A stretch of DNA of 9,385 bases from an uncultured Oscillospiraceae bacterium (GTDB taxonomy: Bacteria; Bacillota_A; Clostridia; Oscillospirales; Oscillospiraceae), in NCBI GenBank assembly GCA_900754605.1, contig CAAEDK010000158.1, forward strand, positions 1-9,385, written 5' to 3'. The number at the start of each line of letters is the position of its first letter. Position 1 is the stretch's first letter. Positions 1 to 9,385 of this stretch are shown here, in pieces. Below the pieces are notes generated by a model. That model ran no database searches. It saw only the letters and a list, made by a program, of their open reading frames with translations, and had not been told where the DNA came from. A program made the translations under genes and the position numbers.

Positions 1-9
1 TCAACCAAG

Positions 10-28
10 GTTTTGCCTCCGGCAAAAC
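10..28 (-). terminator. Hairpin downstream of the DUF815 gene, possible terminator
   Basis: GTTTTGCC and GGCAAAAC form a perfect 8-bp stem around a 3-nt loop. The stem extends by four more pairs (6-9 with 30-33) if base 29 is bulged. It lies about 60 bp past the stop codon of the minus-strand ATPase gene. No clear U-run follows on that strand, so it may be a non-canonical terminator, an mRNA 3' end stabiliser or a dispersed palindrome. Confidence 0.45.
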
Positions 29-50
29 GCTTGTGCGCCGCGGGGCGGCG

Positions 51-66
51 GGGCGCTTCCGCGCCC
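51..66 (-). other. GC-rich hairpin just after the DUF815 stop codon
   Basis: GGGCGC and GCGCCC pair perfectly around a 4-nt loop, 22 bp beyond the stop codon of the minus-strand ATPase gene. There is no U-tract. With the hairpin at 10-28 it forms a tandem pair of 3' structures that may protect or end the ATPase mRNA. Confidence 0.35.
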
Positions 67-88
67 GTGGGAGATGCGGGACACCCGG

Positions 89-1288
89 TCACAGGCTCAG
101 GCTGGCAATAAACTGTTTCGCCGTTCGCGGCGTCCGGCCCGGGTTGCGCATCTCCCACTTGACCGCCTCGGCACGAAGACTATCCCGGTCCAAGGCAATC
201 CCCGCCTGCTCCGCCATCCCCTCCACCAGCTCCAGGAACTCCGCCTGATTCAGCGCCAAGTAGGGTATGCGCAGGCCGAAGCGGTCGGACAGGGAGGTCT
301 TCTCCTGAATGGTCTCACTGGCGTCCACCTCGTCCCCCGCCCGGTCAGAGAAGGTCTGCCGCACCAGCCGCCGGCGGTTGGAGGTGGCATAGACTGCCAC
401 GTTGGCGGGCCGCCGCTCTAAGCCGCCCTCCAGGATGGTCTTGAGGGCGGAGTAGGTCTTGTCGTCCTGATCAAAGGCCAGATCATCGATGAACAGGATG
501 AATTTCAGCCGCCGCCCGCCCAGGGTACGGATGAGCCGGGGCAGATCAGCCAGCCCCTCCTTCTGCACCTCGATGAGGCGCAGGGCCTCAAAGCCGGGCA
601 GGGTGAGCAGGTTCTTCACCGTGGCGGACTTGCCGGTGCCGCTGTCGCCATACAGGAGTACATTGTTCACCAGGTTGCCCTCCAGCATGGCCCTGGTATT
701 GGCGATGACCCGGTTCCGCTGGAGCTCATAGCCCAGCATCTCGTCCGCGCCGGGACAGTCGGGTTGCTCCACCGGGCAGAGCGCCCCATCTTCCCACAGG
801 AAAGCCCGGTGCCGGGCAAAGAGCCCCGCGCCGTTGGCCCGGTAGAACTCCGTCAGCTCCGCAAAAGAAAACGGGCTGCTCCCCCGCCACCGGGGCAGGT
901 TGGCCAGCACCGGCCCATACTCCCGCGGCGCTTTCCCCCCCACCTCAGCGAGCACCTGGTCCCAGTCCAGCTCCGCCAGCAGGGTGAACGTCTCAATATC
1001 CCGCCGGGCGGCCGCCTCCAGGGCGGGGTCCTCCCCGCCCCGCTCCGCCAGAGCGGCATAGGGGGATTCCCGATCCCGGAGCCGGCCGTCCAGCCATTCC
1101 CCCAGGCTCCGGCTCCCCGCGCTCCGCAGGGCATAGAACAGCCGGGCGTAGTCCTCCACGGCCCCGCTGCCGTCCCCGGCGGACAGCTTATCCAGTACCC
1201 CCAGCGCCAGGCGCATCACTGGCTCATCCACAACAGGCCGGTAGGCCGCTACCCCCCGCAGGGCGCAGCGCAGCATGTCGGTTGTCAT
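89..1288 (-). CDS. DUF815-family AAA+ ATPase
   Basis: This 399-aa protein has a complete P-loop ATPase core. The Walker A motif GDSGTGKS is at residues 214-221, the Walker B segment FILFIDDL at 263-270, a sensor-1-like ATSNRR at 301-306, and a conserved SLSDRFGLR segment at 332-340 that probably carries the arginine finger. An alpha-helical N-terminal region of about 190 residues precedes the core. This layout and the motifs match the DUF815 family (PF05673) of AAA+ ATPases, whose cellular role is poorly defined. No membrane segment is visible, so a cytoplasmic location is inferred. The ATG at 1288 has a good purine-rich site (GGGGAGAGG) just upstream and a near-consensus promoter behind it. 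The gene is markedly GC-rich with strong G/C bias at third positions, unlike the genes right of about 1500, and probably belongs to the host chromosome. Family assignment is firm; function is not known. Confidence 0.9.
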   Translation of the reverse strand: MTTDMLRCALRGVAAYRPVVDEPVMRLALGVLDKLSAGDGSGAVEDYARLFYALRSAGSRSLGEWLDGRLRDRESPYAALAERGGEDPALEAAARRDIETFTLLAELDWDQVLAEVGGKAPREYGPVLANLPRWRGSSPFSFAELTEFYRANGAGLFARHRAFLWEDGALCPVEQPDCPGADEMLGYELQRNRVIANTRAMLEGNLVNNVLLYGDSGTGKSATVKNLLTLPGFEALRLIEVQKEGLADLPRLIRTLGGRRLKFILFIDDLAFDQDDKTYSALKTILEGGLERRPANVAVYATSNRRRLVRQTFSDRAGDEVDASETIQEKTSLSDRFGLRIPYLALNQAEFLELVEGMAEQAGIALDRDSLRAEAVKWEMRNPGRTPRTAKQFIASLSL

Positions 1289-1359: not shown

Positions 1360-1399
1360 TGTCCGCGTTTTCTTTCCAAATGAAACCACTGGCTGCGCC

Positions 1400-1428
1400 G
1401 CATAGGCAAAAGAAACCTGCGGATAATA
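1400..1428 (+). promoter_or_regulatory. Possible forespore sigma-G-type promoter of the truncated spoVT-like gene
   Basis: GCATA (1400-1404), a 17-bp spacer and GATAATA (1422-1428) resemble the sigma-G pattern gHATR, 17-18 bp, CATWHTA, with one mismatch at the first -10 base. In Bacillus subtilis spoVT is a sigma-G gene, and the position, about 35 bp before the ATG at 1464, is right. The match is short and was found by eye, so it is tentative. It supports the idea that the fragment downstream keeps its native promoter. Confidence 0.4.
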
Positions 1429-1451
1429 AGGGCTGTAACTACAACCGCAGG
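1416..1451 (+). other. Inverted repeat overlapping the spoVT-like ribosome binding site
   Basis: CCTGCGG (1416-1422) and CCGCAGG (1445-1451) are perfect 7-bp inverted arms separated by 22 bp. The right arm runs into the ribosome binding site AGGAGGAG (1449-1456) and the left arm touches the possible -10 element. It could be an operator half-site pair or an RNA stem hiding the ribosome binding site. With the gene cut off downstream it may now be a relic. Confidence 0.35.
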
Positions 1452-1463
1452 AGGAGTTTATAG

Positions 1464-1502
1464 ATGAAAGCGACTGGTATCGTGCGCCGTATCGACGAAT
1501 GA
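1464..1502 (+). pseudogene. spoVT: 5' remnant of an AbrB/SpoVT-type transition regulator gene
   Basis: A strong ribosome binding site (AGGAGGAG, 1449-1456) leads into ATG and 12 codons reading MKATGIVRRIDE, followed directly by TGA. That peptide is the characteristic N-terminus of the SpoVT/AbrB swapped-hairpin DNA-binding family. In intact members it continues into a LGR-VIPKE-IRR segment completing the DNA-binding domain. None of that continuation is present in any frame downstream, so the gene is cut after codon 12 rather than frameshifted. It diverges from the DUF815 gene and keeps its upstream region. The simplest reading is that insertion or recombination placed foreign DNA at about 1499. 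The family match is strong for so short a stretch; the choice of spoVT over another abrB-like paralogue is inference. Confidence 0.65.
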
Positions 1503-1593
1503 GATATAATAGGGCAAAGTCGGAAACCACTATGAATGGCTGTTGTTTCGCTGATTTTGTCCAAATTCCAGAACATATTCGCCATATTTGTTG

Positions 1594-1643
1594 GCTCCGA
1601 CATTTCGATACTCCATAAAAAAGGGGGGCAGTCATGTCGGAGC
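1594..1643 (+). promoter_or_regulatory. 10-bp inverted repeat in the parA leader
   Basis: GCTCCGACAT (1594-1603) and ATGTCGGAGC (1634-1643) are perfect inverted arms. The 30-nt interval contains the A6G6 ribosome binding site (1617-1628) of the small leader ORF, and the right arm begins with that ORF's ATG. The right arm can alternatively pair with 1656-1663 (GGAGCGAG with CTCACTCC, one mismatch). A further stem, AACGCC with GGCGTT (1670-1675 and 1683-1688), follows. Mutually exclusive stems over a leader peptide suggest post-transcriptional control, or alternatively an operator for the partition proteins. Confidence 0.45.
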
Positions 1644-1705
1644 GAGCTGGAAACGCTCACTCCAGGCATAACGCCGAGGGTGGGCGTTTCCTATTCCGGG
1701 TTTAA
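1634..1705 (+). CDS. Possible 23-aa leader peptide upstream of parA
   Basis: An ATG with a strong ribosome binding site (AAGGGGGG, 1621-1628, 5 nt before the start) opens 23 codons, beginning MSERAGNAHS and ending in TAA at 1703-1705, 28 bp before the parA start. The product is basic with no membrane segment or recognised domain. Its coding region is covered by the alternative stems described for the leader, so ribosome passage would change which stem forms. It could be a true regulatory leader peptide or a chance ORF; only the ribosome binding site and placement support it. Confidence 0.35.
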   Translation: MSERAGNAHSRHNAEGGRFLFRV

Positions 1706-1733
1706 TTCTCACGAAAGAAAGAGGGTACATAGA

Positions 1734-2561
1734 ATGGCGATTATTTTGGCGATCACAAACTCCAAAGGTGGTGTCGGTAAAACCACAACTTGCGCTAACC
1801 TCGGGGCCGCCTTGTCCGCAGCAGGAAAGGCCGTTCTTCTGGTAGACAATGATCCCCAAGGCGATCTGACAAAAGTAATGCGCTCTGACCCTAAATCATT
1901 GAAATACACGCTTGCAAATCTGATGAATGCAGTGCTGGATGATACCGAGCCTGAACTCTTTGTAAATAGGGCGGTCATTGAGGGGGCTGGCATTCACTAC
2001 ATCCCGGCAAATTCCAAACTGGCTGGTGTGTCCAGCCGGCTGGTCGCTCTGCAAATGAGCAGCCGTTACCGCGGCGGAGAGACCGGCGGTACTCCCTGTG
2101 AGCTGGTTATGGCTCGTGTCCTGGAGCTTTTCCAGTCGCAGTATGACTACATCTTAATTGACTGTGGTCACAGTATGGATCTGCTGACCATCAATGCGCT
2201 GGCTGCGGCCCATCAAGCCATTGTCCCCGTGCAGGCCCACTACTTGGCTATGGAAGACATGGCTGATACCTTGGAGGTCATTCAGACAATCCGCCAAGGG
2301 ATTAACCCCAAATTAGCTGTCGGTGGTATTTTGCTGACGATGTACCAAGGGCGTACCAATCTGTGCCGGGGCATACAGGACGAGATCCAAGCCGACTACG
2401 GCAACGCATTTACCGTATTTTCCTCCCCCATTGATTTCTCAATCCGTGTTGCAGAACATCCCATTGGAGCGGCCAGTATCTTTGCATACGAGCCGAACAA
2501 CCCCGCTGCAAAGGCTTACTCCGCCGTCGCACAAGAGGTGCTATCCTATGGCCAGAAATAA
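1734..2561 (+). CDS. parA: ParA/Soj-type partition ATPase
   Basis: This 275-aa protein is a deviant-Walker ATPase of the ParA/MinD family. It drives segregation of plasmids, chromosomes or excised conjugative elements by ATP-dependent DNA binding that is reset by ParB. The deviant Walker A KGGVGKTT is at residues 11-18, the A' motif DNDPQG at 38-43 and Walker B YILID at 139-143, with the expected C-terminal alanine-rich region. Where most relatives read D-C-P-P-S after Walker B, this one reads DCGHS (143-147). The ATG at 1734 has GAGGG 8 nt upstream and gives the standard ParA N-terminus; the frame stays open upstream to 1536, but that extension has no family resemblance. The stop codon lies inside parB, so the two are co-translated. 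Length is typical of small element-borne ParA proteins. Confidence 0.92.
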   Translation: MAIILAITNSKGGVGKTTTCANLGAALSAAGKAVLLVDNDPQGDLTKVMRSDPKSLKYTLANLMNAVLDDTEPELFVNRAVIEGAGIHYIPANSKLAGVSSRLVALQMSSRYRGGETGGTPCELVMARVLELFQSQYDYILIDCGHSMDLLTINALAAAHQAIVPVQAHYLAMEDMADTLEVIQTIRQGINPKLAVGGILLTMYQGRTNLCRGIQDEIQADYGNAFTVFSSPIDFSIRVAEHPIGAASIFAYEPNNPAAKAYSAVAQEVLSYGQK

Positions 2562-3579
2562 AGTGCAGGACGCACTCCGGCAACGGAAACGAAGTGAAGC
2601 GGAGGCGGCGATGGCAAATGGCCCGCCGGAGGAGGGAGCCTACCAATGCTTTTTCAATCGCGATGATCTCCCCTCTCCTATGGAGGGTGGAACGCTTTGT
2701 GATTTTCCGCTGGCCCAGTTGAGTGGTTTTCCCGACCACGAGGAGCATTTCCCTCTCTATACCGGAGCGCGGCTGGAGGACATGGTGGAGAGCATCAGGC
2801 GGCATGGAGTTCAGTCTCCCATTCTGGTCTGGAAAACTGCTGAGGGCACCTATATTATAATTAGCGGCCACAATCGGGTCAATGCCTCAAAGATTGCTGG
2901 ATTGACTACAATCCCAGCCGTTATCCGGACAGACTTAACTCAGGAAACCGCGGAAGACCTGTTCTATGAGATGAACTTCCGGCAGCGGTCCCTCGCGGAT
3001 ATGCTGTTTTCTCAGAGAGTCCTTTGCATTGCGGCCCACTACAATATGCTCAAGCGCCAGGGGCGCCGCACGGATCTCCAGACTTTTGAAACAACTTCTC
3101 CTGACACTCAGGAAAAGTCCCATACGGATGTAAAAATCGCACAGGAGTATGAACTGACCAGGGATAAGGTATCCAAGTATTGCCGCTATGCTACATTATA
3201 CCGTCCGCTGCTTCTGCTGATGAATAGCGGAAAACGACTGGGACAACTGGCTGCGTATGAAATCAGCTTCGTGGAGGACCATAGCCTTCAGGAGTGCATC
3301 TATCAGTTTATTTCGGAAGGGAGTGCCTCTATTTCCACGGCAAAAGGGAAAAAGCTCCGCGCCGCTTTTGAAGACGGCAAACTGGATGCCTCCCAGATCA
3401 AATCCATATTGAGCGGAGGCGGCTTGTCTACCTCAAAGCAACCGGGGCGGCGCGTTTCTGTCACGCTCCCTCCGGCCTTTGCACCGTACTTCCCGCCCAA
3501 GGCCACCACAAAGCAAATCGAAGAAACCATACAAAAAGCCCTGGCTCTGTATTTCAAGACCATGGGAAATGCTTCATAG
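2548..3579 (+). CDS. parB: ParB/Spo0J-type partition protein
   Basis: This 343-aa protein is the DNA-binding, probably CTP-using partner of the ParA encoded just upstream, with which its gene overlaps by 14 bp. Residues 50-130 carry the ParB N-terminal fold: the FPLAQL entry strand, LEDMVESIRRHGVQSPILV (75-93), and the nucleotide-pocket box, here ISGHNRVNASKIAGL (105-119) instead of the chromosomal GERRYRA form. Residues 190-216 look like the helix-turn-helix that reads the centromere-like site. The C-terminal part (from about 300) is short and unlike chromosomal ParB dimer domains. The box variant is typical of plasmid and element proteins. The ATG at 2548 is preceded by AAGAGGTG. A strong terminator follows 18 bp after the stop codon. 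No obvious repeated parS array was found in the window. Confidence 0.88.
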   Translation: MARNKVQDALRQRKRSEAEAAMANGPPEEGAYQCFFNRDDLPSPMEGGTLCDFPLAQLSGFPDHEEHFPLYTGARLEDMVESIRRHGVQSPILVWKTAEGTYIIISGHNRVNASKIAGLTTIPAVIRTDLTQETAEDLFYEMNFRQRSLADMLFSQRVLCIAAHYNMLKRQGRRTDLQTFETTSPDTQEKSHTDVKIAQEYELTRDKVSKYCRYATLYRPLLLLMNSGKRLGQLAAYEISFVEDHSLQECIYQFISEGSASISTAKGKKLRAAFEDGKLDASQIKSILSGGGLSTSKQPGRRVSVTLPPAFAPYFPPKATTKQIEETIQKALALYFKTMGNAS

Positions 3580-3597
3580 TCCAGTAAAGCAAATAGG

Positions 3598-3639
3598 CTC
3601 GGCACCCCTATCGACCGGGAGTGCCGGGTCTTTCTTTTT
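3598..3639 (+). terminator. Rho-independent terminator after parB
   Basis: An 8-bp stem (3598-3605 with 3621-3628, including one T-G pair) is extended by three G-C pairs across a bulged A at 3620. It closes an 8-nt loop and is followed by TCTTTCTTTTT. It sits only 24 bp before the next gene's start codon, leaving no room for a promoter after it, so it may act as a partial terminator or attenuator between the partition genes and the surface operon. Confidence 0.8.
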
Positions 3640-3663
3640 ACTTTTTACAGGAGGCGGTTGCCA

Positions 3664-4107
3664 ATGTCAAAGAATCTTTATCTCTGTGTCCCCGACCCAT
3701 TTGATAGTTCGACCGGTGCGCGGCTGGAGCGTATGGGAATTCTGCGCCCGGATGGCGAGGTAAATGTTGAAGTAATGCGGGCTTTTGTGCAGATCTTCGG
3801 CGGCTTATTTTTTGATGATCTGTGCGATTTCTACTCCGATCAAGGAGAGGTGTCTGCTGTGACGGCAGCTTTTTCAGAGTTGGCCGCCCGCAAAGATTGT
3901 CAGAACATTTATCTGCTGATCTCCCTTCAGTATGATACCATTCGGAAACCGCTCCCTGATCCCATCTGGTGGCTGGCCGGCTGCGCACCAGCCCTGTCGC
4001 TGTTTTGTCTGGGTTTTGTAGAACGGCTTCTGGAACTGTCGGAAAATCAGGCCAGCAACGGGAAGGAGATGGTTGCCAATGAAACTGCTGATTGCTGTAC
4101 CGGCTGA
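3664..4107 (+). CDS. Hypothetical protein, 147 aa, first gene of the surface operon
   Basis: I do not recognise a family. The protein begins MSKNLYLCVP and has a mildly acidic first half with hydrophobic stretches (FVQIFGGLFF, 41-50; IWWLAGCAPALSLFCLGFVE, 101-120). The second could be a membrane-associated helix or a buried one, but is interrupted by a proline. It has five cysteines, two adjacent near the C-terminus. The ATG at 3664 is preceded by a consensus AGGAGG (3649-3654) with 9-nt spacing; a TTG at 3658 is too close to that site to be the start. The 3' end overlaps the RelE/Gp49-like gene by 29 bp, so translation is probably coupled. It lies directly behind the parB terminator. Gene reality is well supported by the ribosome binding site and the overlap; its role is unknown. 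Confidence 0.7.
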   Translation: MSKNLYLCVPDPFDSSTGARLERMGILRPDGEVNVEVMRAFVQIFGGLFFDDLCDFYSDQGEVSAVTAAFSELAARKDCQNIYLLISLQYDTIRKPLPDPIWWLAGCAPALSLFCLGFVERLLELSENQASNGKEMVANETADCCTG

Positions 4108-4483
4108 GGGGAGCGTTCCCCTTTTGGAGTTCTTTGGGTTGCTGGATGAAAAGCAACGGCAAAAGCTGCTTTCGCTTTTTGCCCTTCTCCTACAATCTCC
4201 AGCGGCAGTCATGCGCGAGCCCTATGTCAAGCACTTCTGCATCGAGCGTTACCAGGCGCTCTATGAACTGCGAGCCAAGAGCAAAAACCTGGTCCGCATC
4301 ATTTTCACACTCACTGATGACGGGGACATCCTGTTTCTCACGCCGTTTATCAAGCGTCATAAGCGGAACACCATGCAGGCGCTGGACCGCTCCCTGGACT
4401 GTTTGACGCACATCAGAGATGGATCATGCTCTACGCAAGAGCTGTCCATAAAATTCTTTCTCAACGGAGGTATCACAGTATGA
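4079..4483 (+). CDS. RelE/HigB-like (phage Gp49-like) domain protein
   Basis: This 134-aa protein resembles the Gp49-like branch of the RelE/HigB fold (PF05973). The diagnostic run is LYELR (61-65), RIIFTL (73-78) and FLTPFIKRHKRNT (86-98), then a C-terminal helix. Known members are often mRNA-cleaving toxins paired with a helix-turn-helix antitoxin. Here the basic cluster after the last strand is kept, but neither neighbour is an HTH protein, so a toxin role is not established. An N-terminal extension of about 40 residues and a C-terminal tail of about 20 go beyond the core. The ATG at 4079 follows AAGGAGA with about 9-nt spacing. The gene overlaps its predecessor by 29 bp and its TGA overlaps the next ATG (ATGA), so it is embedded in the operon. 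Confidence 0.6.
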   Translation: MKLLIAVPAEGSVPLLEFFGLLDEKQRQKLLSLFALLLQSPAAVMREPYVKHFCIERYQALYELRAKSKNLVRIIFTLTDDGDILFLTPFIKRHKRNTMQALDRSLDCLTHIRDGSCSTQELSIKFFLNGGITV

Positions 4484-4572
4484 CGAAACACAAATTCATT
4501 TGGGCTGGGCTTGCCATCGGAGTCCCCGCACTGGTCCTGGCGCTCTGGAAAGGCTGGTGGTGTAAGGTATGA
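4480..4572 (+). CDS. 30-aa single-span membrane microprotein
   Basis: The sequence begins MTKHKFIWAGLAIGV and ends KGWWCKV. Residues 7 to about 24 form one strongly hydrophobic helix flanked by lysines on both sides, which suggests a small membrane protein. The ATG overlaps the TGA of the RelE-like gene (ATGA, 4480-4483) and its own TGA overlaps the ATG of the next gene (ATGA, 4569-4572). A GGAGG site (4466-4470) sits 9 nt upstream. Precise coupling on both sides is good evidence that it is translated, despite its size. It resembles no known family that I recognise. It could be a partner or stabiliser of the membrane protein encoded next, or a short holin- or toxin-like peptide; the former fits the context better. 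Confidence 0.65.
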   Translation: MTKHKFIWAGLAIGVPALVLALWKGWWCKV

Positions 4573-5675
4573 AAAAAGTGGCAATCCTGCTGGCGCTTTT
4601 TTGTATGCTGACGGTCACTGCCTCCGCCGCCTATATTCCCGAGGATGTAATATCCGAAAATCGGGATGGCCGACAGCTCATCGTCAAAACCTATATGCTT
4701 CCCCCTGATGCAGACCCCAGCGGTCTGGTAGAGGAGCCTTTCGAGGTGGAGGGCTATTCCTACCACCATCTTGAAACGGTCAAAGAGGAACAGACATTCG
4801 AGGATTCTAAAATCCAAACGGAGGTCGTCACGCTGGAAACAGATGTAGATGATCTTGCGGCTATTCTGGAACAGCTGGATGCCAGCATGGAGTACAACAA
4901 GGATGGCTATTCCGGAGTGCTGACTCTGGACCACACTACAATCCAAACCGAAGCCGCAGGCTATACCACTAAATACTATACGATTACCGATACCAAGCAG
5001 TTTACAGGCCTGGACCGAAACGATCCCTCCTATGTCCCTACTACTACTGTCAAAAACGGAAGCACCTTGAAGCTGAGTGACATTTCCTGGACCGTGACAG
5101 GGACCGGCCTGGCCGATGATACGCTGGTTCCCACTTCATACACGGCTACGGCAACTTATACCGCTACGGGGAGCAGAAGTGTAGCTACCGGATATGTGAC
5201 AACGGCCAGCTATACCGGCGAAATAAAGGCCGAGGGTGTTGAAGCAGTCAAGTACACCGTGACCTACCTTGGAAGTCCGGTGGGATTCCTGGCTGGCCTC
5301 AATCCCATGTGGCTCCTCGCCGGGGGAGGGCTTTTGCTGCTTGCAGGTACCGGGGGCATTATTTATATCATGAAACGGCCCCGCGCAGTAATTTATGCTA
5401 TGAACGCCCGAGGCGTCGCCTATAAGAAATTGGGCAAGCAGAAGATTTCCACCCGCACCCCTAAGCTGGATCTGACGAAGCTCCGGGAATACCCGGCTGG
5501 AGACGCAAGCGTGGAGCTTCCCAGCAAGCTGGCCCATAAGCTCGCCGGCAGGATCATCACTATCCAGATGTATGGCGGGAGCCGCACCCATCTGGTGGAG
5601 GCCTACGACGGGCAGGACAGTTACTGGTTTGCCATCAAGGAGGATGCGGAGGAAAAGGAGGAAAGTGAATCGTGA
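4569..5675 (+). CDS. Exported single-span membrane protein with cytoplasmic tail, unknown family
   Basis: This 368-aa protein starts with a typical signal peptide (MKKVAILLALFCMLTVTASA, likely cut near residue 20). About 220 extracellular residues follow, rich in Thr, Tyr and Asp with beta-strand character (long Thr-rich run at 188-216). A single span lies at about 246-267, then a positive stop-transfer KRPR (269-272) and a cytoplasmic tail of about 100 residues ending in an acidic Glu-rich stretch (358-367). The tail has the look of a small compact domain. I recognise no family. The start at 4569 overlaps the microprotein stop, and its stop overlaps the sortase start (GTGA), so it is co-translated with both. 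This suggests a membrane partner of the sortase machinery, for example a surface sensor or assembly platform, but that role is inferred from context only. Confidence 0.75.
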   Translation: MKKVAILLALFCMLTVTASAAYIPEDVISENRDGRQLIVKTYMLPPDADPSGLVEEPFEVEGYSYHHLETVKEEQTFEDSKIQTEVVTLETDVDDLAAILEQLDASMEYNKDGYSGVLTLDHTTIQTEAAGYTTKYYTITDTKQFTGLDRNDPSYVPTTTVKNGSTLKLSDISWTVTGTGLADDTLVPTSYTATATYTATGSRSVATGYVTTASYTGEIKAEGVEAVKYTVTYLGSPVGFLAGLNPMWLLAGGGLLLLAGTGGIIYIMKRPRAVIYAMNARGVAYKKLGKQKISTRTPKLDLTKLREYPAGDASVELPSKLAHKLAGRIITIQMYGGSRTHLVEAYDGQDSYWFAIKEDAEEKEESES

Positions 5676-6424
5676 AAAGGCTCAGGGGACTTTGCCTGTC
5701 CCTGGCGGGGCTCATGCTGATGACTACGCCGGCCCTTGCTGCGGACTACAACTTTGAAACACCGGCGCCCAAGGACTTCTATGGGAGCACTTCCTACGAA
5801 GAGGTCTACGGGGCTCAGTATAACTACGGTGGCACAAACGCGGTGGACTTTCTTGATCCCCTGGCCGACAGCGCCCCCGGGATCTCCATCAACAGCGGCT
5901 CTTCACTGGAATACGGGATCAATTCAGGAAGTGGGAGCATTTACCCCGATAGTTCCGGAAGCAGCTACCCCATCCAGTGGGGAGATGTTCCCACGCTTCC
6001 AGCGACCCAGTTCACAGCGGTGAGCGAAGTAGAGCGGAACGATGGCAGCATTGGTACTCTGGTAATCCCCAGCCTGGGAATTCGCTATAAGGCTTATGAC
6101 GGTACTGATTCTGCTTCCATGCGCAAAGGTGTGGGCCACTTCCCCAGCACAAGCGCCTGGGAGGGAAACATCGGTCTGTGCGGACACAACCGGGGCTCCA
6201 GCCACAACATCGGCGCAATCAAGGATCTGGAAATTGGCGATACCATTCGGTATCAGACCAGCCTGGGGACAAGGACCTATGCGGTGAGTTCGGTCAAGAT
6301 CATAGACTGGACTGACTGGAGCTATTTGAACAGCACCTCAGACAACCGGATCACGATTATCACCTGCTTGGCCAATCAGCCTACCAAACGGGTTTGTGTT
6401 CAGGGGATCGAAATAAGTTCATAA
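5672..6424 (+). CDS. Sortase (class B/D-like transpeptidase)
   Basis: This 250-aa protein ends in a sortase fold. The catalytic His172 is in LCGHNRG, Cys232 in ITIITCLA and Arg240 in TKRVCVQG. Sortases cleave sorting signals of exported proteins and join them to the peptidoglycan or to pilin subunits on the outer face of the membrane. The N-terminus (residues 1-24) is a hydrophobic export segment ending A-L-A-A, which resembles a cleavable signal peptide rather than the usual uncut anchor. It is followed by a low-complexity Ser/Gly linker (67-100). Residues 125-250 carry the catalytic domain. The start is GTG at 5672, 10 nt after a consensus AGGAGG (5656-5661), overlapping the previous stop by 4 bp. 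The likely substrate is the adhesin at 8105, whose C-terminal sorting signal lies beyond the window. Class assignment is uncertain. Confidence 0.88.
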   Translation: MKRLRGLCLSLAGLMLMTTPALAADYNFETPAPKDFYGSTSYEEVYGAQYNYGGTNAVDFLDPLADSAPGISINSGSSLEYGINSGSGSIYPDSSGSSYPIQWGDVPTLPATQFTAVSEVERNDGSIGTLVIPSLGIRYKAYDGTDSASMRKGVGHFPSTSAWEGNIGLCGHNRGSSHNIGAIKDLEIGDTIRYQTSLGTRTYAVSSVKIIDWTDWSYLNSTSDNRITIITCLANQPTKRVCVQGIEISS

Positions 6425-6539
6425 AATTTTTATCGAATATTTCCTTGGCGCTTTCATTGGGAATTATGTGAAAATAGCAAAATCGCAGAACATATTTATT
6501 GACTTTCGTTTTATCGGTAAAGGCGTTTCAAAAAAACCT

Positions 6540-6568
6540 TTGACAAGTCCCGATTTTCGCCTTATTTT
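6540..6568 (+). promoter_or_regulatory. Sigma-A-type promoter for the 69-aa gene and SLH gene
   Basis: A perfect TTGACA (6540-6545) is followed by a 17-bp spacer and TATTTT (6563-6568), four of six to the -10 consensus. The start would be near 6575, about 35 nt before the ATG at 6609. A small inverted repeat, CCTTA (6560-6564) with TAAGG (6576-6580), spans the -10 and start site and could be an operator. The 6425-6539 stretch before it is AT-rich and holds nothing else I can name; no clear terminator follows the sortase gene. Confidence 0.6.
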
Positions 6569-6608
6569 GGTCTTGTAAGGACGCTCCAACGAGAAAAGGG
6601 GGATTGTC

Positions 6609-6818
6609 ATGGTTAAGGAGTTTCCGAAAGGAAAAGAGTGGCTGCTGGACAATTCCGCGCTCCGGGTCAGTCTGGACATGACCTTTGATGTCCCTGAAGA
6701 GATTGCGGAGCAGTTAGAATTGTGGGGTCTTAATATCTTTGAAACTTGCGAATATGATCCCACATGCCGGCGGCTAAAAATGAGCGCCAGCACGACGCTA
6801 TATCGAAAGGGGGCATAA
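6609..6818 (+). CDS. Hypothetical protein, 69 aa
   Basis: This is a small soluble protein without signal peptide or membrane span, beginning MVKEFPKGKEWLLD and holding two cysteines (C47 and C53) in a region CEYDPTC. It matches no family I know. The ribosome binding site AAAAGGGGGA sits just upstream of the ATG, and a promoter is found about 40 bp further up. Its stop codon is 4 bp before the SLH protein start, so the two are almost certainly co-transcribed and probably translationally linked. Possible roles include a regulator of the SLH gene or a small accessory protein; nothing in the sequence decides this. Confidence 0.65.
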   Translation: MVKEFPKGKEWLLDNSALRVSLDMTFDVPEEIAEQLELWGLNIFETCEYDPTCRRLKMSASTTLYRKGA

Positions 6819-6822
6819 TGGA

Positions 6823-7962
6823 ATGAAACAAAAACGCCTTTTACCGTTGTTCCTTTGTCTGTGCCTGCTGTTTGTACTGCCGGTTAAGGTAAGCGCCGCA
6901 GACAACAGCGAGCAGGAAACCTCCGCAGCCTATCTCCGTGAGCAGGGGATCATGGTCGGTGACGGCAATGGCGAGATGAACCTGGACTCTGGACTGACCC
7001 GGGCCCAGCTGGCCACAGTCCTGACCCGCCTGCATGGAAACCCAGAGCATGTGCAGGTCGATCAGGCATTCTATACCGGACAATGTAAATTCCCGGATGT
7101 GCCGGAGTGGGCCAGGCTCTATGTTGGTTACTGCTATGCCAACGGCCTGATGGTCGGCTATGATACCGGGGCCTTTGGCGCCGACGATGGAGTGACACCT
7201 GCGGCCGCCTGCACTGTTGTTCTGAGATATATGGACCTGCCGGACACCGAATGGGACTACTCTACCGCCTGCCAGACGGCATTGGACTTTGGGCTGACTT
7301 CGGTGGAAGTTGCTGTTAAAGCTGAAGTCACCCGCGGTGATTTGGCGGTCATGCTCTACCGGGCACTGGGTAATACTGATGCCTCCAGCGAGCATCAGGG
7401 GGAAACCCTGAGCAGGAATGCAGACGGCTCCATCAACCCGCCCGCCGACGGCTCTCAGTATATCCCTCAAGTGGGCGATGTGATCCGCTGCGATGACGGC
7501 ACCAACTATACCATCACTGATGTAAGCCGGTGGGACAAGAACATGTTTGCCTCCGGCCCAATCGGTCCCTTGCCGGAGCCAACCTGTGACTGGAGCTTGC
7601 TCGAACAGCCAGAATTACCGAAAGTGGAGGTGAGACATTTCCAAAACCAGACTGGCGATCATCTCCGTATCCTCAATCTCTATGAAACCAGGCGGATGCT
7701 TTACACACTTTACAATGCTATTGGGGATAGCTCAACCACCTGGGAAAATGGAGCGCCCAAACTCACCTCAAAAGGAAACCAACTCGTTCACATCAACCTT
7801 GGCTTTTCAGAAGATCTCGCGTACCAAATGTTCTGGCCCTGGCGAGAAAGTGAGATTATAAAGGTGTTTAATGGAATACCTGGTACCTATTCTATGCAGG
7901 CCTGGGATGTCTACAAGGACGGTCAATTCCTACACACCGAATACCAGATTCGTATAAACTGA
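6823..7962 (+). CDS. Secreted S-layer-homology (SLH) domain protein
   Basis: This 379-aa protein has a signal peptide (residues 1 to about 25, hydrophobic core LFLCLCLLFVLPV, cleavage near VSA-A). Up to three SLH-type repeats follow at about 30-72 (GLTRAQLATVLTRL), 89-137 (FPDVPEWARLYVGYCYANGLM) and 143-183 (EVTRGDLAVMLYRAL). SLH domains bind secondary cell-wall polymers and hold proteins non-covalently on the surface. Residues 210-379 form a C-terminal region without a recognised family. It begins YIPQVGDVIRCDDG and carries a WPWRESE motif near 338-344. The ATG at 6823 is 9 nt after AAAGGGGG and 4 bp after the upstream stop. A strong terminator follows, so the gene ends its own short transcription unit. 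It is an outer-surface, wall-bound protein next to a sortase and an adhesin. The SLH repeats are clear; the C-terminal role is unknown. Confidence 0.85.
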   Translation: MKQKRLLPLFLCLCLLFVLPVKVSAADNSEQETSAAYLREQGIMVGDGNGEMNLDSGLTRAQLATVLTRLHGNPEHVQVDQAFYTGQCKFPDVPEWARLYVGYCYANGLMVGYDTGAFGADDGVTPAAACTVVLRYMDLPDTEWDYSTACQTALDFGLTSVEVAVKAEVTRGDLAVMLYRALGNTDASSEHQGETLSRNADGSINPPADGSQYIPQVGDVIRCDDGTNYTITDVSRWDKNMFASGPIGPLPEPTCDWSLLEQPELPKVEVRHFQNQTGDHLRILNLYETRRMLYTLYNAIGDSSTTWENGAPKLTSKGNQLVHINLGFSEDLAYQMFWPWRESEIIKVFNGIPGTYSMQAWDVYKDGQFLHTEYQIRIN

Positions 7963-7967
7963 TTTGG

Positions 7968-8009
7968 AAAGAAAGGCAGCGTGCCACTCGGCACACTGTC
8001 TTTCTTTTT
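7968..8009 (+). terminator. Strong rho-independent terminator after the SLH gene
   Basis: A long stem pairs AAAGAAAGGCAG (7968-7979) with CTGTCTTTCTTT (7996-8007). After one C/A mismatch it continues as GTGCC with GGCAC around an ACTC loop. The descending arm runs into TTTCTTTTT. Its paired A- and T-rich base makes it potentially bidirectional. It begins 5 bp after the SLH stop codon and insulates the adhesin gene. Confidence 0.88.
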
Positions 8010-8104
8010 GCCCATTTTGCATTCCCTACAATTCAATCAAGCCCAATCAAGGGGGGATGCACCTATGGGTAGGGGCGTCCTCCCGATTTTTATGGAGGTC
8101 GCTC

Positions 8105-9385
8105 ATGAAAAAAAGACTGATTTCGATGCTCCTGGCTCTCCTTGCGGTCATGGGGCTCCTGCCAACCGCCGCTTTTGCTGCGTCCACCCCAGAGGAAGCC
8201 TTGGGGGAAGTTCAGATTTACAATGGCGGGGTTGAAATGTCTTATCTGTCCATCAATGGGCGGATCAGATCCCAAATTTACACCTATTACAATTATGATA
8301 ACGGGAGCGGGAGCACTCGGGAGATTCCCGCTTACTGTGTCAACCCGAACACGCTGGGGGTCCCTCAGACCGTGGGAGTCGGTGAGAGTATTGAATATCT
8401 CGCCGATGAAAAAGCCAGCGATCCCAAGGTTGTCGGTATCGTGGCCAACGGCTATCCCACGCGAAGCCTGGCCGAGCTGGGACTGGAAAACAAATATCAG
8501 GGCTACTACGCAACTAAAATGGCCCTGTGGTGTTATCTTCTCAGCAACTGGGACATCAACAACCTCAAGGTCAATCCCAACCTGACCGGCGTAGAACTTC
8601 AAAGAGCACAGAAGATTTTGGCTGCGGCAAAGGACATTTACGCCCGTGGTACGGCCTGGAATGAAATGCTCTCCCCTGAAGTGACCTGTACCCCAGACCG
8701 GGATACCGCCTATGAGGTCACCATTGACGGAAAGCAGTACAAGCAACAGGTCTTTACTTTCTGGTCTAAAACCTGGGTATGCGATTACTCCGTCAATGTC
8801 GCGTTTTCTGTGCCGGACGATGTACCTGATGGGACCCGCATCGTGGACATGAATAATCAGGATATTACCACGATCACCACTGAGGGTACAGGCGACGGCT
8901 ATGCCGGCAAATTCAAAATCCTATATCCTCTGGAAAGTGTGCAGGGCAAGACCGGCAGCGTCCAGTTGTCTTTCAACACAAATGTCTATAAGTACGCTGT
9001 ATTTTTTGCGATATGTCAAGAGAAAGATGAATATGGCGAACTCCAGAATTATGTGGTAGATACTGACCCCACTACAACAACGCAGTTGTCCGCATACAGC
9101 AACTACTCGGACGGTACGACCATCGAGTATGAAACCGGATTGCGCATCATCAAGTATGAGACCGGCACCGAGATTCCAATTAGTGGGGCACTGTTCGAGG
9201 TCATCGGCCCCGACGGTGATTCCGTAGGTACTTTTGTGACCAACGGGGACGGCCGCATCGAAATTCCGCTTAAAAAGAGCGGGAATTATACCGTAGTTGA
9301 ACGGGAAGCTCCACAGCATTATATGATCAGCGAGGAGCCTGCCCAGAATGTCACCGTCGTCTACGATGAAGTAGCCGAGGTGACA
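8105..9385 (+). CDS. Thioester-domain and CnaB-type surface adhesin, partial (3' end outside window)
   Basis: The frame is open from ATG 8105 to the last base, giving 427 residues with no stop. A signal peptide occupies residues 1 to about 26 (LLALLAVMGLLPTAAFAA). A TQXA/thioester-like head follows. The thioester-type Cys78 is in AYCVN, matching the [YFL]C-hydrophobic-[DN] motif, and the segment at 137-142 reads TKMALW where the family signature is TQxA-hydrophobic-W. Possible partner glutamines are Q215 and Q287. From about 345 a SpaA/CnaB prealbumin-like domain begins, with RIIKYE (candidate isopeptide Lys350), PISGALFEV (358-366), and TVVEREAP (candidate Glu399). Such proteins are covalent host- or cell-binding adhesins, usually ending in a sortase signal, which would lie beyond the window. 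GGAGG at 8094-8098 is 6 nt before ATG 8105. An upstream in-frame ATG at 8057 would spoil the signal peptide. Confidence 0.85.
   Translation, partial: MKKRLISMLLALLAVMGLLPTAAFAASTPEEALGEVQIYNGGVEMSYLSINGRIRSQIYTYYNYDNGSGSTREIPAYCVNPNTLGVPQTVGVGESIEYLADEKASDPKVVGIVANGYPTRSLAELGLENKYQGYYATKMALWCYLLSNWDINNLKVNPNLTGVELQRAQKILAAAKDIYARGTAWNEMLSPEVTCTPDRDTAYEVTIDGKQYKQQVFTFWSKTWVCDYSVNVAFSVPDDVPDGTRIVDMNNQDITTITTEGTGDGYAGKFKILYPLESVQGKTGSVQLSFNTNVYKYAVFFAICQEKDEYGELQNYVVDTDPTTTTQLSAYSNYSDGTTIEYETGLRIIKYETGTEIPISGALFEVIGPDGDSVGTFVTNGDGRIEIPLKKSGNYTVVEREAPQHYMISEEPAQNVTVVYDEVAEVT

What the first reader, a model, noticed from the sequence alone, without database searches (positions are those of the whole stretch)
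1400..1502. spoVT/abrB-type gene cut after 12 codons marks a probable element boundary
Seen: a strong ribosome binding site and the exact N-terminus MKATGIVRRIDE, then an immediate TGA and no continuation of the DNA-binding domain in any frame. A possible sigma-G promoter precedes it. GC-rich DNA lies left of it and lower-GC DNA with parAB and surface genes lies right. Family knowledge: this N-terminus belongs to SpoVT/AbrB proteins, and SpoVT acts late in sporulation. Inference: a mobile element inserted at about 1499, possibly disabling or rewiring a sporulation regulator. The missing 3' part of the gene may sit at the far end of the element.
Basis: partly seen in the sequence, partly recalled or inferred. 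Interest (0 to 1): 0.7.

Follow-up and report, generated by a model that had tools for sequence, protein, structure and literature searches.

The report
Conjugative element splits sporulation gene spoVT
A mobile conjugative element has inserted itself into the twelfth codon of the sporulation gene spoVT of a gut bacterium, and comparison with relatives shows that this gene is a repeated docking site for mobile elements that cut it without destroying its pieces, so whether such bacteria can finish a spore may depend on the element jumping out.

Summary
The stub is real. Host DNA ends at base 1498, in codon 12 of spoVT. A near-identical genome (G345, 6 mismatches in 1,498 bases) carries the empty site with a whole 180-codon spoVT. 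From base 1499 the window is one end of an integrative conjugative element, 99.975% identical to one in another species at the same spoVT site. There the rest of spoVT lies 153 kb away, beyond three large serine recombinase genes.

Two things go further. (1) The element's ends carry -10 (TATAAT, 1505-1510) and -35 (TTGACA, far end) boxes; joined in a circle they make TTGACA-17-TATAAT pointing at parAB. (2) Another kind of element docks at codon 33 of spoVT: at least 51 of 400 family genomes have the 3' part in a long frame; in the 24 of these checked that frame is a serine recombinase, and protein ends are exchanged in frame. Most carriers keep two other spore genes.

Excision, promoter activity and a link to sporulation are inferred; nothing was measured.

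The parts
89..1288 (-). host gene for a DUF815 AAA ATPase (left flank, chromosomal)
   Evidence: PF05673 E 9e-81; same place in G345, 99.6% identical flank
1400..1428 (+). sigma-F/G-like promoter of spoVT (GCATA, 17 bases, GATAATA)
   Evidence: pattern; similar sequence before many stubs of relatives (by eye). Consensus recalled, activity not tested
1449..1456 (+). ribosome binding site AGGAGGAG of spoVT
   Evidence: sequence
1464..1502 (+). spoVT stub: host codons 1-11 and part of 12, closed by element-derived GAA TGA
   Evidence: whole 180-codon gene in G345
1494..1498 (+). attL core GACGA; crossover dinucleotide most likely GA at 1494-1495
   Evidence: shared by attL and attR of G007; in G003 attL reads GAGGA and attR GACGA, leaving GA common
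1499..9385 (+). one end of the integrative conjugative element (runs off the window)
   Evidence: 2 mismatches in 7,887 bases to the element in L007, whose flank differs
1505..1510 (+). TATAAT, -10 half of a promoter completed only when the element is circular
   Evidence: kept in the eight left ends read (window, L002-L007, G163); no sigma-70 match uses it in the integrated form
1593..1690 (+). leader with two conserved hairpins (about 1593-1643 and 1650-1690) before parA
   Evidence: RNA fold z -4.1; alignment of 7 loci
1734..2561 (+). parA
   Evidence: AAA_31/CbiA
2551..3579 (+). parB
   Evidence: PF02195
3664..4107 (+). protein of unknown function
   Evidence: no Pfam
4082..4483 (+). Gp49-like (DUF891) protein
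   Evidence: PF05973
4569..5675 (+). protein of unknown function, secreted/membrane by eye
   Evidence: no Pfam
5672..6424 (+). sortase
   Evidence: PF04203
6609..6818 (+). small ORF, 69 aa, unknown
   Evidence: no Pfam
6823..7962 (+). SLH-domain surface protein
   Evidence: PF00395
8105..9385 (+). thioester/SpaA-type surface protein, cut by the window end
   Evidence: PF08341, PF17802

Best explanation
The stub is attL of an integrative conjugative element that integrates site-specifically, by serine recombinases coded at its other end, into codon 11-12 of spoVT. Integrated, it leaves spoVT in two pieces and its own parAB leader with a -10 box but no -35 box, while the spoVT sigma-F/G promoter faces into it. 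Excised, spoVT is whole again and the joined ends complete a consensus promoter (TTGACA-17-TATAAT) that would fire into the leader and parAB and so help keep the circle while it moves. Shown by sequence: the insertion, the empty site, both ends (in relatives), the gene content, the split promoter geometry. Inferred: that it excises, that the triplet does it, that the promoter works, and when.
For: Empty site in G345. Same site in spoVT in L002-L007, 6 of 7 close ParA loci. Element 99.975% identical to L007 while the host promoter/stub is 79% identical: recent transfer between species. Remaining spoVT codons at the far end in G007 and G003, and a piece in L034 of G006. Recombinase triplet plus a small resolvase-type ORF next to attR; VirD4 and RepA_N genes in the G007 element. 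Joined ends of G007, G003 and G006 give TTGACA-17-TATAAT, 3 of 3; TTGACA also at two further codon-12 right ends, G161 and G260. In the integrated left end no sigma-70 match uses this TATAAT.
Against: No circular form (attP) was seen: 0 matches in viral contigs; genomes were not searched for it. The window does not reach the recombinases or attR. G003's copy lacks about 16 kb of the G007 transfer region. No relaxase was named by Pfam among the ten G007 proteins scanned. TTGACA and TATAAT may be kept as recombinase contacts rather than as a promoter; five other exact TTGACA-16/18-TATAAT sites lie in the 158 kb G007 stretch. A weak promoter match (9 of 12, 1706-1735) lies just before parA in the integrated form.
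Confidence: 0.82

Rival explanations
1. Developmental switch: like skin, SPbeta and gin, the element leaves spoVT on a sporulation cue, restoring the regulator when it is needed.
For: Hosts keep spore genes: SpoIVA matched in 54 of 57 genomes with cut spoVT, SASP in 50 of 57. Cut pieces are not decayed: 30 of 33 residues invariant in 25 codon-33 stubs with free synonymous change; dN/dS of the 3' part 0.024 (G004/G006) and 0.136 (G237/G395). A C. difficile spoVT mutant made no heat-resistant spores (PMC3789822, passages), so a permanent cut should be costly.
Against: The selection evidence concerns the codon-33 elements, not the window's kind. Four related genomes (G158, G257, G294, G327) give 0.28-0.40, and more diverged pairs up to 0.80. 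spoVT is a forespore gene in C. difficile, so excision there would be inherited by the spore. Recent insertion also explains intact pieces.
Confidence: 0.27
2. Plain parasitism: the element uses a conserved gene that is dispensable in vegetative growth; the carriers simply cannot finish spores until chance excision or loss.
For: Triplet serine integrases are known to disrupt their target genes in streptococci (PMC4701971, passages); 2 mismatches in 7,887 bases point to a very recent arrival.
Against: Double insertions at codons 12 and 33 with intact pieces (G004, G005, G006; probably G163) may mean long residence.
Confidence: 0.57
3. The stub is a decayed pseudogene, a leader peptide, or an assembly join.
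For: Only 12 codons.
Against: Empty site with whole gene; same junction in 6 of 7 loci, isolate genomes among them by title, and both ends on one contig in two.
Confidence: 0.02

Closest known systems
Streptococcal ICEs with triplets of serine integrases (Ambroset et al. 2016, PMC4701971; listing and passages seen)
   Same: Three serine recombinase genes in a row at one end, same orientation, very short direct repeat, target gene disrupted, sometimes an ORF between triplet and target
   Different: Targets there are mutT, traG, hsdM; here spoVT. parAB, sortase and surface proteins at the opposite end
Sporulation-gene intervening elements: gin in gerE (PMC5595907, passages and section 11 read), SPbeta in spsM (PMC4191935) and skinCd in sigK (PMC5025042) (search listing and start of abstract only)
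   Same: Serine-recombinase element inside a sporulation gene; gin also splits a short regulator gene
   Different: Those serve mother-cell genes and excise in sporulation; spoVT is a forespore gene and excision was not tested here
Circular-junction promoter of Tn4451/Tn4453 (Lyras and Rood 2000; only the title seen, in the reference list of PMC13023037; details recalled)
   Same: Promoter completed by joining the element's ends, large serine recombinase element
   Different: By its title it serves the recombinase TnpX; here it points away from the recombinases to the parAB leader
Single-serine-integrase ICEs in rumA (PMC4701971, passage)
   Same: Like the codon-33 elements: the attachment site lies in the integrase gene, so integration exchanges 3' ends with the target
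   Different: In rumA the exchange changes the reading frame of both proteins; in spoVT it is in frame on both sides

Membership tests
SpoVT | N-terminal MKATGIVRRIDDLGRVVIPKEIRR and C-terminal SpoVT domain in one gene at the empty site | tested here: met
   G345: 180 codons, matches TIGR02851 positions 1-180 at 209.7 bits, below its curated cut-off of 235.9, which only 2 of 400 family genomes pass
ICE with serine integrase triplet | three large serine recombinases next to one end | tested here: met
   G007 by Pfam; G003 by position and DNA similarity. The window itself does not reach that end
ICE with serine integrase triplet | conjugation genes | tested here: inconclusive
   VirD4 coupling protein in G007; relaxase not named; a likely VirB4 ORF spanning two fetched stretches was not scanned; G003 lacks about 16 kb there
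ICE with serine integrase triplet | site-specific insertion with short repeat | tested here: met
   GA to GACGA at one place in spoVT
ICE with serine integrase triplet | excision as a circle and transfer | not testable with these tools
   needs cultures; attP not found in viral contigs
Sporulation-gene intervening element (skin, SPbeta, gin) | interrupts a sporulation gene whose halves stay intact | tested here: met
   G007 and G003 halves; whole gene in G345. For the window itself only the left half is seen
Sporulation-gene intervening element (skin, SPbeta, gin) | excises during sporulation and restores the gene | not testable with these tools
   needs cultures
Sporulation-gene intervening element (skin, SPbeta, gin) | recombinase or directionality factor under a sporulation sigma factor | not tested
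   promoters of the triplet were not examined
Tn4451-type junction promoter | -35 and -10 on opposite ends, 17 bases apart when joined | tested here: met
   3 of 3 elements with both ends
Tn4451-type junction promoter | drives the recombinase gene | tested here: not met
   it points to the parA end; recombinases lie behind it

The most novel reading that the evidence does not exclude
spoVT is a shared docking gene through which mobile elements hold the forespore programme of gut Oscillospiraceae. The window's ICE turns the gene off on entry and, on leaving, restores it and switches on its own parAB through a promoter assembled at the circle joint. The codon-33 elements go further: integration swaps protein ends in frame, giving recombinase::SpoVT-sensor-domain and SpoVT-DNA-binding::recombinase-tail chimeras, so that the recombinase changes its own C-terminus, and perhaps its direction, on integration.
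Probability: 0.28. Interest if true: 0.88.

Novelty: new variant of a known kind. Interest (0 to 1): 0.68.

Why it matters
Many gut Oscillospiraceae carry sporulation genes, yet (recalled) it is often unclear which can make spores. At least 51 of 400 genomes sampled from this family have the 3' part of spoVT in a recombinase-length fused frame at codon 33, and the window's kind at codon 12 was seen in 6 of 400 by left end. If excision restores spoVT, spore formation and thus spread between hosts would depend on a mobile element, which a simple PCR can test. The in-frame exchange of protein ends at codon 33 offers a directly testable idea for how a serine recombinase could sense its own state.

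Tried and rejected
Plasmid and phage collections: blastn with window 1380-3600 found nothing. Rfam: no match in the window. Viral contigs: no attP or left end, no relative of the tail-form recombinase or of ParA confirmed. Pseudogene, leader peptide and assembly join were rejected by the empty site. dN/dS: one search printed the 40 closest of the codon-33 pairs and the 30 closest intact pairs; most are saturated and I lean only on pairs with dN under 0.2. Literature: no held paper has both 'spoVT' and 'serine recombinase', or 'stage V sporulation T', 'recombinase' and 'fusion'; 'spoVT' with 'prophage' and 'interrupted' gave 2 papers that look unrelated by listing; (3 of 4 terms, 1,526 papers, 20 listed) listed one paper holding spoVT once, on Neisseria prophages, not opened; one search listed 3, not opened. 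Most subscription papers are not held.

Full report
What is in the window. Bases 1-1498 are host chromosome: a DUF815 AAA ATPase gene on the minus strand (89-1288), a sigma-F/G-like promoter (1400-1428) and the first eleven and two thirds codons of spoVT. From 1499 on the DNA is element: GAA TGA closes the stub, TATAAT lies at 1505-1510, then a structured leader, parA, parB, a Gp49-like protein, sortase and surface-protein genes. G+C falls from 0.653 to 0.522.

Empty site. A search of 400 genomes of the family with the flank (108 with a match) found G345, whose 1,498 bases match with 6 mismatches, and which carries a whole spoVT of 180 codons in place of the stub. The two sequences part at base 1499. 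G345 has no copy of the element's left end by pattern with up to 3 mismatches.

Same element elsewhere. ParA as query gave 19 loci in genome contigs; 7 are Oscillospiraceae at 82-100% identity, 12 are proteobacterial at 28-30% and were set aside. In 6 of the 7 (L002-L007) the same spoVT stub precedes the element; L001 lies in another place and its genome has spoVT over its whole length. L007 (Pseudoflavonifractor sp. Marseille-P3106) has 2 mismatches in 7,887 bases of element against 79% identity in the spoVT promoter and stub: the element moved between species recently. Each of G002-G007 has one match to a spoVT N-terminal pattern, the stub. The left end occurs in 6 of 400 family genomes (G004 was not in that sample).

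Far end. In G007 and G003 the rest of spoVT, from about codon 12-13, lies on the same contig 153 kb and 67 kb away. Before it stand three large serine recombinase genes and a small resolvase-type ORF. The G007 element holds VirD4 and RepA_N genes; about 16 kb between the surface genes and the end of VirD4 has no counterpart in G003. So this is an integrative conjugative element, reduced in G003; a relaxase was not named.

Junction promoter. Right ends read ...TTGACACATTAGGA, left ends GANGAATGAGATATAAT. Joined, G007, G003 and G006 give TTGACA, 17 bases, TATAAT (3 of 3). Two further codon-12 right ends, G260 and G161, keep TTGACA although the next six bases differ. The same exact arrangement with 16-18 bases occurs nowhere in the window or the 74 kb G003 stretch and 5 times in the 158 kb G007 stretch, both strands. 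Integrated, the two boxes are up to 153 kb apart, and a sigma-70 scan of 1300-1760 finds no match using this TATAAT; it does find a weak one (9 of 12) at 1706-1735. The joined promoter would read into the leader and parAB. Its function is inferred; the boxes could also be recombinase contacts.

A second docking site in the same gene. Rescoring 79 of the 400 genomes whose best spoVT match was weak showed 50 in which the 3' part of spoVT sits in an open frame of 657-830 aa, and G006 makes 51. Fragments at contig ends were not counted. For 24 of these 51 (and G004, outside the sample) the upstream part was compared with the recombinase P0001: 25 of 25 match at 52-100% identity over 468-584 aligned positions. 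The rest were not compared. In 36 of 53 genomes searched (50 plus G004-G006) a true N-terminal stub (91-100% identity, codons 1-32/33) was found, 13 on the same contig and in the right order, 9.6-40 kb from the fusion; 17 had none at that identity. Of the 36, 30 came with loci; in 30 of 30 the frame runs on past GDP for 23-30 codons into a tail that looks alike in most of them, e.g. SQTTWTWWEMFCYGMLDLAKRTGLDCTS. In the public protein set, 115 of the best 120 hits to one fusion (8,000 scored) carry both recombinase and SpoVT_C domains. Of the five without, P0059 ends in such a tail and the other four end otherwise. A search with the last 65 residues of P0059 listed 120 of 402 hits; 3 of the 120 run through the tail: P0059, P0122 and P0123. 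P0123 begins with a Mur-ligase domain and may be chimeric. P0059 and P0119 differ at 17 of 585 recombinase positions, at none of the last 132, and then end in tail and SpoVT respectively, which is what an excised and an integrated form would look like; a circle itself was not seen. G004, G005 and G006 (probably also G163) carry both insertions; L034 of G006 is the piece of spoVT left between them.

Are the pieces still under selection? In 25 codon-33 stubs, 30 of 33 residues are invariant with up to six synonymous codons; five more stubs, with V at codon 6 and I at codon 16, were not in that count, and most of the divergence may predate insertion. For the 3' part, two pairs whose recombinase diverged about as much as spoVT, so that the insertion may be shared by descent, give dN/dS of 0.024 (G004/G006) and 0.136 (G237/G395). 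G057/G202 gives 0.143, but its recombinases are closer than its spoVT genes. Four related genomes (G158, G257, G294, G327) give 0.28-0.40 in six pairs, which speaks for relaxation there or for something else. Among the 30 listed intact pairs the two with dN under 0.1 give 0.121 and 0.069; the others, more diverged, 0.30-0.61. For the window's own kind there is no such pair.

Hosts keep spore genes: a SpoIVA match in 54 of 57 genomes with cut spoVT and 18 of 23 with whole spoVT, some in pieces; SASP in 50 of 57 and 20 of 23. G007's spoIVA is itself in two pieces 252 kb apart. In C. [quoted passage not shown]

What is known. Triplets of serine integrases and disrupted targets are known for streptococcal ICEs, and rumA elements exchange 3' ends with their integrase gene but out of frame (PMC4701971, passages). 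Elements in sigK, spsM and gerE are excised in sporulation (start of abstracts; PMC5595907). A promoter formed by the circular form is known for Tn4451 (title only). spoVT as a target was not found by searches of the held library.

Verdict. The mechanism is a known kind with new features: spoVT as target, a split promoter for parAB, and, at codon 33, in-frame exchange of protein ends. Whether this is a developmental switch is open.

Noticed in passing
window 1593-1690: Leader before parA has two strong hairpins, z -4.1; aligned in 7 loci, 3 of 60 predicted pairs show a change on both sides, but the covariation term is small (-0.17 of -67). Could be an attenuator.
   Followed up: partly
G007 C20:236830-237279 and 489488-490534: spoIVA lies in two pieces 252 kb apart, residues 1-150 and 144-492; G006 also has spoIVA in two pieces on two contigs. 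A second sporulation gene may be a docking site.
   Followed up: no
L165 (G037): Recombinase-spoVT fusion and N-terminal stub are on one contig but in reversed order, about 19 kb apart.
   Followed up: no
L169 (G313): The next relative of the window's flank (80% identity) has a codon-33 stub with tail instead.
   Followed up: partly
L006 about 9704-9961: About 260 bases of extra DNA inside the leader of the Flavonifractor An306 copy.
   Followed up: no
G345 C174:7392-7856; window 1-154: Bases 1-154 of the window recur, in whole or part, as extra copies beyond the DUF815 gene in G345.
   Followed up: no
L001: Related ParA element outside spoVT, beside a tRNA-like sequence (recognised by eye, not by a tool).
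   Followed up: no
G003 element, position 45200-45898 of the joined, reversed stretch: An ORF that looks like the start of metK (by recall), shorter than usual, lies between the element's ends.
   Followed up: no
P0123: Mur-ligase N-terminus joined to a tail-form recombinase end; assembly chimera or another insertion.
   Followed up: partly
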